Below, in pieces: positions 4,137 to 33,797 of a DNA stretch of 39,010 bases. The notes below the pieces were generated by a model that worked only from the letters and a program-made list of their open reading frames with translations, did not search any database and was not told where the DNA came from. The translations under genes and the position numbers were made by a program. The DNA comes from a virus, in IMG/VR virus record IMGVR_UViG_3300021964_000180, positions 1 to 39,010 of that record. One strand, 5' to 3'. Each line of letters begins with the position of its first letter. Position 1 is the stretch's first letter.

Positions 4137-6764
4137 TTATATTTTTCAAAATATATTTCTTTGATATGGGTCTTTTGTATAAGGATCGTTACTTGACATG
4201 GATGGCTGGTTAGCTGGTGTTTGATTCTGAGACTCTTCTTTTATTCTCTGTTCAATTGCTTCTATATATAAGGTAGGAGAGACTATGTCTGGTAGATTGT
4301 TCACATGAAAATCTATATCTGTGGTTGTATCAACTGGTCTTATACTAAATTCTCAATTTTGATAATCAAGGTTTCTGAGCGTGGTAGATATATCCTTATC
4401 CAATGCTCAAAAGTAGGTCTTATATCAATCAATTCCTATACCTTGTGATACAGATTCTGCAAATTTTGTATTAAGGAACTCATATGTGCTTGCATCGATA
4501 TTATCTATCATAGCAGTTATGTCCCCTTGTGATACACTAGCATCTTTTCATACTGTTGGTAGGGTTCTACTAAATGCAGCCCACTCTTCTTTACTTACTA
4601 CAGCCCCAGTTCTTGACCTCGCAAACTTATCTAAGAAATCATCAAGTCTACCGTCAAGGATATTTAATGCTTCGTCTGTTGTTTTCCCTGCATACTCATA
4701 TACTCATTCAGAGATTTTTACTATTTTCCCAACATCTCCTCAAGCTTGTGTGAAATCATCTAAAGCAAAGGCGAAGTCTATTAATTGGGATTTTAATTGT
4801 TCTCAAGTATCTACTTCTTTTATTATAGCAGGTGGTAGATTGTTTTTTCGTATTTCTTTTGTATGTCTAGCTGCTAAATCAGTTTTTCATTGGTCTATCA
4901 TACTTTGCACAAAAGCCATATTATCTCATTTTTGTGTTGTAGATGATGATAATATAACAGACTGAGCTATATCCATTAAGGAATCCTTTTGATTTTGAGG
5001 AGATACAGATCACCCACTATTTAAATATTGTTCTACCTTCTGTGGTGATATTCTTTGTCAATTAGTATCTCGTACTGTGATATCCGCATGGCTTCAATCT
5101 CAATTCTCTCATGGAATAACGAATCATGTATTACCTATTGTAGCAAACATTTGTCATTTAGTTATAGTGTCTCATGTTGTTACTCCAACATCATTAAGAT
5201 GAGCATATCTTGTTCTATTTCAACTAGTGTCTTCTACTGTAACCCAATTACCATATCAGGAAGGGTCGCTTCAATAATCTACTACTGTCCCATTAAATGA
5301 TGCCAATATAGGGTCTCATATTTTCCCATCAACATCTAATCAGTATGGGTTTGCATCTGTTCAATAGGCTGTAACCCTGCCTGTTCCGACATCACTAACA
5401 TTTCATGTTATGAAGGCACTACCAGCTCAGGCAAATATCTCTGTTCAATCTACATCAGTTATACCATAAGTTCAATCTCCATAGTCAACTAGAGAGCTTC
5501 ATGGATTTGCTTGTAATTTTGATACTATATCTAGTGCATTTCATGGGTCTGACTCCATCAATATCTTTGAATATAAGTCTAGGTTTGCATAATGCTGTGC
5601 CAATTCTGTATTACGTTGTGCTATTCAAGCCTGTGTTGTTTTAAATCATCTTTCCCATTCAGCTTGTGATTTAGTAAAATCAAACTGTTCTGCTTGAAAA
5701 TCAAACGCTCTATCTGCTTGTTTCTTAGAAAAATCAAATTGTTCCTGTTGAAGAGCAAAAGACTTTTGTTGTTGCATGAAGTTTATCATCTGAGTATCCA
5801 TACCTAGTTGTGTCTGTATCATTTGTTGCTCAAATGCTCTTTCTTCTCTTCCATCCTCTAATGCGAATTGGAATCTTCTCTCAGCGTGGCTCAACGCTGT
5901 ATTATAGTCTGTCTGAGCAAAGAATAAATCATCCTCTAGCATATCTATCTGCCTCTGTATATCCTTGTTTCTATTAGAGGTTAATGCTCTAATATATGAT
6001 TCGCTTGCTTGACCACCCTTCTCTTCTCTAATATCATCCTCAGTTTGTTTCATAATGTTTCTCAACTCTATTATCTCCTTCTGAAGAACATTATATTTAT
6101 CTAACTTATCTGTGAGTTCTGGAGTATCAAGATACTTATTATATATCTCCTCAGAGCTAATTTTATTATCTGCAATAGTCTGCATTCTTTTAATAGCGTC
6201 TTCATTATTCTTTTTCATCTGAGCGAGTAAGTCTCCAGACTCATCATAGGTACCCCTAGGGTCTCAATTAATACTAGCTAATGCCGCAGCATCATTCTGT
6301 GCATCCAACATATCTTGGAAAAGTTCAGGGTTATCTCTCTGTATAAGGTCTATTTCATCCTGACCTATATAACCTGAGTATACCCCCTTAATAACCTCCG
6401 CACCTGTTGTTGCCCCCTTAAGTCTATTTCTTGTGAAAATCTCATTCCTTATATCTCTATCTCACTCTAGGTTAGAATCCCTCACAGTGTTTTGACTTGG
6501 CTGAGTGGATGTTTGTACCACTGGGGGTGTCTCACGAGGCTCTGGTGTTTTTTTAGGTTCTGAAGTAGCGGGTTCTGCTGCGTTCCTTTCAGTTATCTCT
6601 TGCCTCACTGACGGTCTAGTGGTTGGAGTTGGCTCAGGTTGAGTTATAGACTCATTCTGTGCTCTTATTTTATCCTTGATTGTAGGATTAGCAGTACTTG
6701 TCTGCTGCGTATCTCAGATGATATCAGCGTTCTGTGCTCTAATCTTATCTTTTATGCTTGCCAT
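4137..6764 (-). CDS. Internal virion or tape-measure-like protein with M23 (LytM)-like domain, 875 aa
   Basis: Residues about 1-100 are proline- and charge-rich and carry a repeated KDKIRAQN motif at residues about 5 and 30. A long helical, probably coiled-coil region (about 180-390) contains QFDF repeats. A Peptidase M23-like beta domain lies at about 465-575 (YGLDVDGKIGDPI, YGNWVTVED, RYAHLNDVG, KGQMFATIGNTG, GSHADITV). The C-terminal 300 residues are helical. M23 domains in virion proteins typically cut peptidoglycan during DNA entry. Here the first metal histidine (HxGxD) is missing and the final HxH is HAD, so activity may be altered or lost. The M23 region is rich in TGA glycine codons. 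Confidence 0.85.
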
Positions 6765-6783: not shown

Positions 6784-7506
6784 CTAATCTGTCACTACTG
6801 TACCTGTTATAAATGCTCTTCCCTTATGGGATACGTCATATTTCACTCTAAAGTTTTCTACTAGACTCACTGTCGCTCATGGTGCATATATCCAAAGCTC
6901 ACATGTATCTCCATTATCAAAGGATAAATCCTCACTCTTGGTTGAATAAGTTGAAGACACTGAACTCTGTTCTGTTCCAAATGCTACTCCATTCTTATAC
7001 ACTCTTCAATATGCTGTACTAATACCACTTCTCTTTAGGTCGAACTCTATAGTATATTCCCCTGTGTATTCTATGTCTATTTCTTTTACCTTAGTATATG
7101 ATGTTGCTGCCGTACTCTGTTCTGTATCTGCCGCTGCTAATGTATAGGTTGTACCTGCTATTGCATCTGCTCAATAATAGGTAAATAACTGTTCTAAACT
7201 AGCGTATTTCTCTGTGTCAGTTCCAGTCTCCAGTTCTGTGTCATTCCCTCTTTCTACTGTACCTCTCTTTGTCTCACTTGCTGGTATATCATCTCTAAAA
7301 TCATCCATCAACACTTTCCTTCTTAAACCATTACTTCCTTTCTCAAAGATGAGGTAGTCTGCTGTAGCATCAGCTGTCGCAATCTCTCAATTGTAATCAT
7401 CAGCTCTATATTGAGAACTATCCAAAGGCTGCTCATTAGACAATCATGGTTTTCAGGTCATTGACTCTGTAGATTCCAAGTACTGTTTTTCTAGTTCTTT
7501 ACTCAT
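6784..7506 (-). CDS. Virion-associated protein, 240 aa, unknown family
   Basis: Starts at ATG 7506, overlapping the end of the upstream gene by 8 bases. Acidic N-terminus, with residues about 130-240 rich in Thr, Ser, Tyr and Val (for example IEFDLKRSGISTAYGRVYKNG), which suggests a beta-sandwich or carbohydrate-binding module. Its place between the propeller-like tail protein and the internal virion proteins suggests a tail or baseplate component. I do not recognise a named family. Confidence 0.75.
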
Positions 7507-16180: not shown

Positions 16181-16254
16181 TGCCCCCCTTCGGATTCGAA
16201 CCGAAACTGTACGCGTTCTAAGCGCGCTATCTCTGCCAATTGGATTACGGGGGC
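16181..16254 (-). tRNA. Atypical class I tRNA, anticodon UAG (reads CUA, Leu?)
   Basis: The acceptor stem pairs GCCCCC with GGGGGC, discriminator A73, and a G-G mismatch at the last pair. The T arm is canonical (TTCGG, loop TTCGAAT, CCGAA). The anticodon stem GCGCG/CGCGT closes loop CTTAGAA, giving anticodon UAG. The D arm has G18G19 and A14 but a weak stem of about 3 bp. The variable loop is only about 5 nt, unlike bacterial leucine tRNAs, which have a long arm. CTA codons are common in this genome, so it may supplement host decoding. Charging identity is uncertain. No 3' CCA is encoded. Confidence 0.8.
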
Positions 16255-21824: not shown

Positions 21825-21852
21825 TTGACTATTGTATATACATTAGTATATA
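21825..21852 (+). promoter_or_regulatory. Promoter of the structured RNA, TTGACT-N16-TATATA
   Basis: -35 at 21825-21830, 16-base spacer, -10 at 21847-21852. The predicted start (about 21859) falls at the first base of the long closing helix of the RNA, which strongly links the two. Confidence 0.75.
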
Positions 21853-21858
21853 GAGGGT

Positions 21859-22104
21859 AGAGTCTATAAGTGATGGTGTAGTAGTGGCGGAATAGGTAGA
21901 CGCATAGCTACGTTTTGGGAGCAAGATACAACCCGAAAAGTCACAAGTAGTGGGAGAGACGTCTCTGTAATACGAAGGTAGGGCACTGTTTGAACGCTTG
22001 CATACAAGGTGACTATACGAGTCTCGCACCATTATGGATTATATCCATAGACGAGCAAATCTCGGCAAATCCTTGTCTACTACATCATCATCTATAGGCT
22101 TTAC
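21859..22104 (+). ncRNA. Structured RNA with tRNA-like D-arm and 24-bp closing helix
   Basis: The ends (21861-21884 and 22077-22100) pair over 24 positions with one mismatch (A-C) and three G-U pairs, a sign of RNA-level constraint. Just inside lies a segment (21885-21904) that matches the D-arm of class II (leucine) tRNAs: TGGCGGAATAGGTAGACGCA. Other helices: ACAAGG 22004-22009 with CCTTGT 22071-22076, stacked on the closing helix, and hairpin TATGGAT/ATCCATA 22033-22049. It has its own promoter. An HNH gene starts 26 bases downstream. It could be an intron-bearing tRNA, a tRNA mimic or a structured leader; class unknown. Confidence 0.6.
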
Positions 22105-22129
22105 CAAAATTTATTTCCTAACCCAATAT

Positions 22130-22582
22130 ATGAAGAAAAGTTTTATGCTGTATCAGGACAGTTTAGATGTCCTAGATGCTATGACAGATGCTCAATGTTG
22201 AAAACTTTTGAGACTTATGAGGAGTCATCACAATGGAAAAGAATACTGCTCAGGGGATCAAATAGTAGACATTGCTTTCATTCCGTTCAAGAACCAGTTT
22301 GATAGGGATATTGAGAAATCTAGGTGTGGGAAGTATCACTGGAATCGGAAAGGCGGTATAACCAGTGAAAATAAAACCATAAGAAATAGCACTGAATATA
22401 AAACATGGAGGGAAGATGTATTTAAAAGAGATGAGTATTGTTGCCAGTATTGTTGAAGAGTAGGGTGAGAGTTGAACGCACACCACATAAAAGAATTTGC
22501 TAAATACCCCGACTTAAGACTTGATATCTCCAATTGACAAACGCTATGTAAGTCTTGCCATATTTTAGCCCATAAATCATAA
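22130..22582 (+). CDS. DUF6291-like / HNH endonuclease fusion, 150 aa
   Basis: Residues 1-80 resemble the DUF6291 phage replication-initiator N-domain (SFMLYQDSLDVLDAMTDAQ, GGITSENK). Residues 100-150 are an HNH nuclease: C104/C105, C108, AHHI (117-120), N135 and CKSCHILAH (140-148). Four TGA glycines, including CGRVGGE. The next gene carries the same N-domain without HNH. It probably nicks or cuts DNA, either as a homing nuclease that captured a host-gene domain or as a replication nickase. Confidence 0.85.
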
Positions 22583-22584
22583 AC

Positions 22585-23235
22585 ATGAAAAGAGAGAGTT
22601 TTGTTGTATATCGCAGCTACTATGAGGCCATTAAGAAGCTACCCCAGGAGTCACAGCTACTAGCACGAGAAAAGATACTTGCATACTGATTAGACAATAA
22701 GAATATAGAATGTGATGACACATTAGTAGATATGATATTCTGACTTATGAAGCCAAATATTGATGCCACTAACAAGAAGTACGATGTCTGTAGCAGACAA
22801 TGAGTGCATTGAATAAAATGAAAAGAGTTTTGAAAATTATGAGCAGAATATGGGAAGCTAGGAGGAAGGCCAAGAAAAAACCCCCCCCTTGATAAAAATA
22901 AACCCCCCCTTAATGATAATGTAAATGATAATGATAATGTAAATGATACTAAAAGAAAAGAATTAGAAAAGTTTATTTCTGTTCGGAATAGTACAAAAGT
23001 AAATAAACCATGATTTAAACAATTACCAAAGACTTCCAAGATCACAAAGTTATTATATGATGCTTTCGTGTTGAGAAGGAAAGAGTTTACTCTTGATGAG
23101 ATGATTGAGGGATTACAGAAGTATCTTCAGGACTGTTTGAACAGGAAAGAATGAAGTGATTATGCCTCCCACCGTTTTACCCTCTATAAGTTCCTAAAAC
23201 AAGCTAACTGATTACAGGAGTTTTTTAATACTTAA
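22585..23235 (+). CDS. DUF6291-type replication-initiator-like protein, 216 aa
   Basis: The N-domain ESFVVYRSYYEAIKKLPQ leads into GKLGAEYGKLGGRPRKNP, the glycine/lysine repeat that usually ends this domain; several of those glycines are TGA. A short Asn/Asp linker (NDNVNDNDNVND) joins a C-terminal helical domain (KTSKITKLLYDAFVLRRKEF). Proteins with this layout sit in phage replication modules next to the helicase, as here. Confidence 0.8.
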
Positions 23236-32997: not shown

Positions 32998-33117
32998 ATG
33001 CCAAAAATAATAAAGAGAGGGAAACCATTTGGATTGAAAATATACCGACCACCTAAATACAAAAATAAACTAATCACAATCAAAATATTCTATTTAGTTT
33101 TCTATATAAAATGCTAA
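32998..33117 (+). CDS. Possible small basic peptide, 39 aa
   Basis: MPKIIKRGKPFGLKIYRPPK and a hydrophobic end; overlaps the GlyRS-like start by 7 bases (ATG inside its last codons), a coupling style common in this genome. Short, so uncertain. Confidence 0.35.
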   Translation: MPKIIKRGKPFGLKIYRPPKYKNKLITIKIFYLVFYIKC

Positions 33118-33797
33118 AAATTTACGAAAACAACTGACTACTCTTCCGAACACAAAAAGACATAGAGCTTAGAGAGTTTTTTGTAAAGAATATCAGCGAA
33201 CAGCTAAAACATTTCCTAAAAACAATAAATCACTCTTTTGATTTTCAGAGAGTGGAAGCTAGTCAGTTGACCCCAATTGATCTTTTGAATGAAAACTATA
33301 CAGAAGATGATTACTACAAAGTAGATGACTTAGCTCTTAGACCAGAGACTACAATGGGGAGTTTTGCCTATGCAGACCACATACTAAACCCACACAACAA
33401 ACCAAAAACAAGATTGCCTATTGTAGTACGACAAGCAGGTAAGTCTTTCAGGAGAGAACAAGATAAGGTTTTGAAGCACATGAGATTAAAAGAGTTCTAT
33501 CAGCTAGAGTTCCAAGTAATATACTCCAATACAACAGCAGATGATTATTATGGTAGAATAGTAGAATATATAGACCTACTTCTTAGCTCCCTTGTGTGAG
33601 ATACTAGATTAGAACCAAGTGATAGATTGCCCAGCTACTCAGAAATAACTACAGATGTAATAATGGAATGGAATGACATGGAGATATGTAGCATCTCCAA
33701 AAGAAAAGACTACCACGATGATATAGTGACAGAGGTTGCTATAGGTCTCGATAGACTTGTATACAATTATAATTGCATTCTTTGAGAAACGCTTTAA
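33111..33797 (+). CDS. Glycyl-tRNA synthetase-like class II catalytic core, 228 aa
   Basis: ALRPETTMGSF (residues 75-85) matches the GlyRS-specific LRPETAQG element. RLPIVVRQAGKSFRRE (101-116) plus MRLKEFYQLEFQ (124-135) is class II motif 2. CSISKRKDY (193-201) matches the GlyRS ARGDYDL-like strand and VAIGLDRL (209-216) is motif 3. The protein stops there: there is no C-terminal anticodon-binding domain, and the usual insertions are gone (known GlyRS subunits exceed 400 aa). Three of its glycines are TGA. It could charge tRNA-Gly, including one reading UGA, or a tRNA-like RNA, or be a repurposed core. Confidence 0.82.

What the first reader, a model, noticed from the sequence alone, without database searches (positions are those of the whole stretch)
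21825..22129. Promoter-driven structured RNA with class II tRNA-like D-arm next to an HNH gene
A consensus promoter places the 5' end exactly at a 24-bp terminal helix with one mismatch and three G-U pairs. Just inside is a 20-base match to a leucine tRNA D-arm, yet the element is about 240 nt and no normal anticodon or T arm is evident. ACAAGG/CCTTGT stacks on the closing helix as a T stem would, with a 61-nt insert. It may be an interrupted tRNA, a tRNA mimic or a new RNA class linked to the nuclease.
Basis: seen in the sequence. Interest (0 to 1): 0.72.

Follow-up and report, generated by a model that had tools for sequence, protein, structure and literature searches.

The report
Phage tRNA-shaped RNA with swappable core
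Many bacterial viruses, including this one, carry a small RNA built on the frame of a leucine transfer RNA but with the anticodon part replaced by an exchangeable folded insert; no RNA-family library or paper we could search describes it, and its job is unknown.

Summary
The window is a phage record whose genes are open only with TGA=Gly. The element (about 21861-22100) belongs to a large class of phage RNAs that Rfam, ARAGORN and the searchable papers do not describe. Scaffold-pattern scans of IMG/VR returned 12, then 120 and 120 contigs (both truncated). 183 dissimilar compact members share a covarying 7-bp acceptor-like stem, a near-invariant tRNA-Leu D arm (GCGGAATAGGTARACGC) and a 6-bp T arm with loop UGCAAAU. 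A variable, often pseudoknotted domain replaces the anticodon and variable arms. The window belongs to a subclass (18 distinct members) with an extra hairpin inside the T loop and a longer closing helix; six contigs found afterwards all showed the predicted stems and 3' motif. The central domain moves as a cassette: same flanks with different middles, and same middles with unrelated flanks. tRNA genes lie nearby more often than in controls, always on the same strand. The acceptor end is not conserved for charging. The HNH link is incidental, the promoter claim unsupported, and a group I intron core rejected. Most likely: a stand-alone phage RNA whose tRNA-like scaffold carries a swappable effector domain, perhaps for counter-defence (inferred).

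The parts
21861..22100 (+). whole RNA element, phage tRNA-like RNA with T-loop insert
   Evidence: homologues and covariation; fold z -2.65
21861..21884 (+). 5' strand of the closing helix (inner 7 bp correspond to a tRNA acceptor stem)
   Evidence: pairs with 22077-22100; covariation in relatives
21885..21904 (+). conserved UG (positions 8-9) and tRNA-Leu D arm, stem GCG/CGC
   Evidence: sequence; near-invariant in 183 members; exact hits
21905..22001 (+). variable central domain in place of anticodon and variable arms
   Evidence: not alignable between members; cassette exchange in the class
21913..21938 (+). hairpin TTTTGGG/CCCGAAAA in the central domain
   Evidence: pair probabilities 0.58-0.96; window-specific
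21921..21925 (+). 5' strand GCAAG of the conserved-position helix Pv (pseudoknot)
21997..22001 (+). 3' strand CTTGC of Pv, abutting the conserved AT at 22002-22003
22004..22009 (+). T stem 5' strand ACAAGG
   Evidence: T stem 14/14 paired in the subclass
22010..22070 (+). T loop opened by an inserted hairpin: motif GACTATACGAG (22011-22021) ... CTCG (22061-22064), then CAAAT (22066-22070)
   Evidence: motif conserved in the subclass
22071..22076 (+). T stem 3' strand CCTTGT
22077..22100 (+). 3' strand of the closing helix
22130..22582 (+). neighbouring DUF6291-HNH gene (code 25); neighbour only, not part of the RNA system
   Evidence: Pfam PF19808 and PF01844; no consistent HNH neighbour in relatives

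Best explanation
It is a stand-alone phage RNA on a tRNA-shaped scaffold. Shown by sequence and covariation: an acceptor-like stem, a Leu-type D arm and a T arm are conserved, while the anticodon and variable arms are replaced by a hypervariable, often pseudoknotted domain that is exchanged between phages as a cassette; the window member also has an extra hairpin in its T loop. Inferred: the scaffold lets host tRNA machinery process, fold or protect the RNA (compact members probably by RNase P and RNase Z; the long closing helix of the window type probably closes off and protects the ends instead), and the cassette carries the specific activity. The RNA would act in trans to the benefit of the phage, most likely by binding a protein of a host defence or of a rival element. 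Order of certainty: RNA class about 0.95; scaffold plus exchangeable effector about 0.6; counter-defence about 0.3.
For: Acceptor-like stem: pairs 1-7 form in 165-180 of 183 members (shuffled 72-94 for pairs 2-7), at chance from pair 10; 6-bp T stem covaries. T-insert subclass: T stem 14/14, closing helix covarying to about 12 bp; held-out test passed by 6 new contigs, 4 distinct. Helix Pv anchored at the conserved AU: 12.1 vs 8.7 shuffled, only at that place. Cassette exchange: 10 of 36 pairs with both flanks alike have middles below 60% identity, 42 pairs share a middle but not flanks; L083/L087 in the window's subclass. Presence/absence: the related Lactobacillus phages A2, J-1 and others share the flank but show no D arm, while R29.1 has the RNA. 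tRNA genes nearby in 36/147 vs 10/137 controls, 76 of 76 on the same strand. Absent from 595 Bacteroidota and Pseudomonadota genomes by the compact pattern.
Against: No transcript, processing or phenotype data. RNase P/Z handling is inferred from stem lengths and tRNA neighbours only; the T stem is 6 bp, not 5, and U55 is G. No protein family is consistently next to it that would name a target. Part of the apparent conservation (fixed letters of the D arm and T loop) was imposed by the search patterns. Cassette exchange alone does not show a conflict function. Cassette statistics come mainly from the compact form; for the window subclass one pair was examined.
Confidence: 0.5

Rival explanations
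1. A base-pairing regulatory RNA: the central domain is antisense to phage, host or rival-phage transcripts, and the tRNA-like frame only stabilises it.
For: Hypervariable, swappable middle; many phage and bacterial small RNAs act by pairing (established knowledge).
Against: No excess complementarity to the surrounding phage DNA: longest antisense match averages 9.23 vs 9.23 shuffled in 162 members; two middles searched in 50,697 phage records matched only copies of the RNA itself, on the same strand as the RNA. Host genomes were not tested.
Confidence: 0.15
2. A translation-related RNA, tmRNA-like or a charged leucine carrier: LeuRS does not read the anticodon, so a Leu-like body could be charged without one.
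For: Leu-type D arm, acceptor-like stem, T arm, a pseudoknotted insert as in tmRNA, and neighbouring tRNA genes.
Against: Base after the 7-bp stem is free (A 84, T 64, C 19, G 16), no encoded CCA in most (10 of 183 have CCA in the next 7 nt), acceptor sequence unconstrained; the window type has no free acceptor end because the helix runs on.
Confidence: 0.08
3. A decoy for tRNA-cleaving or tRNA-binding host factors, acting through the tRNA-like elbow itself rather than through the middle.
For: Elbow parts are the most conserved; many defence systems attack tRNAs (established knowledge).
Against: The anticodon arm, the usual target of such nucleases, is missing; a pure elbow decoy gives no reason for a hypervariable, exchanged middle.
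Confidence: 0.15
4. A structural or packaging RNA or late-operon leader element.
For: Frequent place after late transcription regulators and before terminase or head genes in temperate Firmicutes phages.
Against: Many members lie elsewhere, among tRNAs or beside replication genes; downstream genes are mixed; many sister phages do without it.
Confidence: 0.08
5. A group I intron-like ribozyme core: P1 TTTTGGG/CCCGAAAA with a U-G pair, P3 GTCAC/GTGAC, P7 ACAAG/CTTGT.
For: In this one sequence the strands fit the order P3-P7-P3'-P7'.
Against: The P3 partner is missing in relatives read by eye; compact members have no T-loop insert at all; Rfam finds no intron at E up to 10.
Confidence: 0.01

Closest known systems
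tRNA-Leu (Rfam RF00005, class II tRNA)
   Same: D arm sequence, UG at positions 8-9, 7-bp acceptor-like stem, T arm, often beside tRNA genes
   Different: no anticodon arm, no free discriminator or CCA rule, 6-bp T stem, G at position 55, hypervariable middle; not called by ARAGORN or Rfam
tmRNA (SsrA)
   Same: tRNA-like ends joined to an internal pseudoknotted domain (tmRNA features from established knowledge)
   Different: keeps a D stem, no tag frame looked for or evident, no conserved acceptor identity, far shorter; no Rfam tmRNA match
Bacterial Y RNAs (YrlA)
   Same: non-coding RNA that mimics tRNA D and T arms at the end of a long helix (own knowledge)
   Different: different sequence; no Rfam match; a Ro-protein link was not tested beyond the window genes examined
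GOLLD and ROOL ornate phage RNAs
   Same: phage-borne structured RNAs often near tRNAs (own knowledge; cryo-EM paper PMC12286853 listed)
   Different: much larger; Rfam models do not match this element
Type III toxin-antitoxin RNAs (ToxI type)
   Same: short pseudoknots with varied specificity (own knowledge); only an analogy for what a swapped pseudoknot could do
   Different: no repeat array, no toxin gene seen as constant neighbour, mounted on a tRNA frame
rliG (RF02415) and mcrA RNA (RF03010)
   Same: found next to the compact RNA in a Listeria phage
   Different: rliG aligns to the sequence upstream only and mcrA lies downstream; neither is this RNA

Membership tests
tRNA-Leu (RF00005) | recognised by tRNA models | tested here: not met
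   ARAGORN and Rfam do not call it; of 224 compact members ARAGORN reports only two tRNA-Thr at positions after the element
tRNA-Leu (RF00005) | anticodon arm with 7-nt loop and U33 | tested here: not met
   central domain is variable and forms other helices
tRNA-Leu (RF00005) | D arm and 7-bp acceptor-like stem | tested here: met
tRNA-Leu (RF00005) | 5-bp T stem with loop UUCRANY | tested here: not met
   6-bp stem, loop UGCAAAU in compact members; opened by an insert in the window
tRNA-Leu (RF00005) | A73 and CCA end, charging with leucine | tested here: not met
   base after the stem not conserved, no CCA in most; charging itself not testable
tmRNA | match to tmRNA models | tested here: not met
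tmRNA | tag reading frame with resume codon | not tested
   no dedicated scan was made
Group I intron | P3-P7 core conserved in homologues and model match | tested here: not met
Bacterial Y RNA | Ro protein partner encoded with it | not tested
   no search for a Ro (TROVE) protein was made
Type III antitoxin RNA | inhibits a ToxN-like nuclease | not testable with these tools
   needs an experiment

The most novel reading that the evidence does not exclude
A very widespread, so far unnamed class of phage RNA that uses a tRNA-shaped scaffold to present an exchangeable, often pseudoknotted effector against host defences or rival phages, swapped between phages much as anti-CRISPR genes are.
Probability: 0.35. 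Interest if true: 0.93.

Novelty: categorically new. Interest (0 to 1): 0.82.

Why it matters
An RNA present in hundreds of sampled phage contigs, including isolated phages of lactic acid bacteria and Listeria, appears to have gone unannotated because its conserved part is short and split and its middle is hypervariable. The tRNA-like ends with an exchangeable middle make a clear, testable prediction: one scaffold, many effector domains. If the middle proves to be a counter-defence element, it would be a new way for phages to carry RNA-based inhibitors. The two-block signature also gives annotators a simple way to find it.

Tried and rejected
Group I intron core: fits this sequence alone, not the relatives. 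Interrupted tRNA: compact relatives lack the insert yet have no anticodon arm. HNH linkage: no consistent HNH neighbour. Promoter: none at consensus. Homologues by the HNH protein gave no phage with the RNA; the terminase led to two. A general second pseudoknot helix (Pa) is not significant overall (11.85 vs 11.24 shuffled); an index error in the second half of that script was corrected. Free pseudoknot search in the middles gave only a weak excess. rliG covers upstream sequence only. The ARAGORN positive control was uninformative and is not used. An early translation was out of frame and was redone.

Full report
What is there. The window is a 39,010-bp virus record. Its genes are open only when TGA is read as glycine, which points to a phage of Absconditabacteria or Gracilibacteria (inference from the code). 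The element lies between a small gene of unknown family and a DUF6291-HNH gene. Its strand folds better than all 200 shuffles, and the closing helix is near certain in the ensemble. Rfam at E up to 10 shows nothing relevant, and ARAGORN calls only one true tRNA, elsewhere in the window.

How relatives were found. Exact long patterns and the HNH protein gave no phage with the RNA. The terminase led to related phages, and a DNA comparison with their whole records showed the D arm in two of them and, colinear with it, the T-arm motif in one; reading the second record showed the T-arm motif there too. This gave a two-block signature. A pattern with that signature found 12 viral contigs and two genome contigs, one of which is an ordinary tRNA-Leu beside a chance match. 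Hits to phages of lactic acid bacteria, Listeria and Brochothrix revealed a compact form without the T-loop insert. 224 distinct compact cores were collected, 183 after thinning of near copies.

Structure. In the 183 compact members the stem next to the conserved UG is paired in 165-180 members at each of positions 1-7, with many pair types, against 72-94 in shuffles for pairs 2-7. Pairs 8 and 9 are partly kept and pair 10 is at chance. This is the length of a tRNA acceptor stem. The T stem has six pairs, of which the outer four vary and covary, and it stacks directly on the acceptor; the loop is UGCAAAU. Some letters of the D arm and T loop were fixed by the search pattern, so only the free positions count as evidence: UG before the D arm in 181 of 183, A in the D loop and GC at the end of the D arm in nearly all, and AU before the T stem in most. 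A helix (Pv) whose 3' strand abuts that AU exceeds shuffles only when anchored there (12.1 vs 8.7). In the window it is GCAAG 21921-21925 with CTTGC 21997-22001; the 5' strand lies in the loop of a predicted hairpin, which makes a pseudoknot.

The window's subclass. In 14 members the T loop is opened by an insert GACTATACGAG...CTCG. T stems are paired in 14 of 14, and the closing helix covaries to about 12 pairs. A last scan with a different spacing found six more contigs, four of them distinct. All had the 3' motif, a perfect T stem and a closing helix, none of which was in the pattern. This is the held-out test of the model.

Behaviour in evolution. The central domain is exchanged. Of 36 pairs with both flanks alike, 10 have middles under 60% identical (random pairs of middles average 48%), and 42 pairs share a middle but not flanks. 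In the window's subclass L083 and L087 have 98% identical left 100 nt but unrelated middle and insert. Lactobacillus casei-group phages such as A2 and J-1 share the upstream flank with its late regulator but show no such D arm in the stretch fetched, while phage R29.1 has the RNA. The compact pattern is absent from 595 genomes of Bacteroidota and Pseudomonadota; Firmicutes genomes, where the compact form is common in phages, could not be sampled.

Context. Upstream neighbours are often late transcription regulators; downstream neighbours are mixed. tRNA genes lie within 600 nt in 36 of 147 cases against 10 of 137 control segments, and all 76 such tRNAs are on the same strand. In phages Lenus, 8014-B2 and Gut-P1 the RNA sits unannotated among tRNAs.

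Mechanism. Shown: a tRNA-shaped frame and an exchangeable structured middle. Inferred: processing or protection by tRNA machinery, and a trans-acting effector in the middle. Against charging: free discriminator position and no CCA in most. Against antisense action: no excess complementarity. Patchy presence and cassette exchange are typical of phage accessory genes in conflict with hosts or rivals; that is the reason for preferring counter-defence, and it is not a test of it.

Novelty. No Rfam family covers it. Eight full-text searches of open-access papers found no description (two candidate papers read). Subscription literature was not searchable, so an existing description there remains possible, and the label 'categorically new' is conditional on that.

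Noticed in passing
window 33111-33797 (+): A class II aminoacyl-tRNA synthetase catalytic fragment, closest in the PDB to glycyl-tRNA synthetase (E 7e-5), in a phage whose genes read TGA as glycine.
   Followed up: partly
window 16181-16254 (-): A tRNA of class I shape (short variable region) with anticodon UAG, called tRNA-Leu by ARAGORN.
   Followed up: no
L087, copies at 4208-4342 and 6957-7091 (-): The RNA locus is present twice, about 2.75 kb apart, identical over the 1.5 kb compared; a duplication or an assembly effect.
   Followed up: partly
L101:1775-1824: In a Listeria phage the Rfam mcrA RNA lies about 100-150 nt downstream of the compact tRNA-like RNA, and rliG just upstream.
   Followed up: no
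central domains of compact members, e.g. L083: The middles are enriched in GGTTCGA and TAATCC, which suggests a second T-loop-like hairpin in some members.
   Followed up: no
window 22130-22582 and 22585-23235 (+): Two DUF6291 genes in tandem, the first ending in an HNH domain, as if a nuclease had joined a duplicated gene.
   Followed up: no
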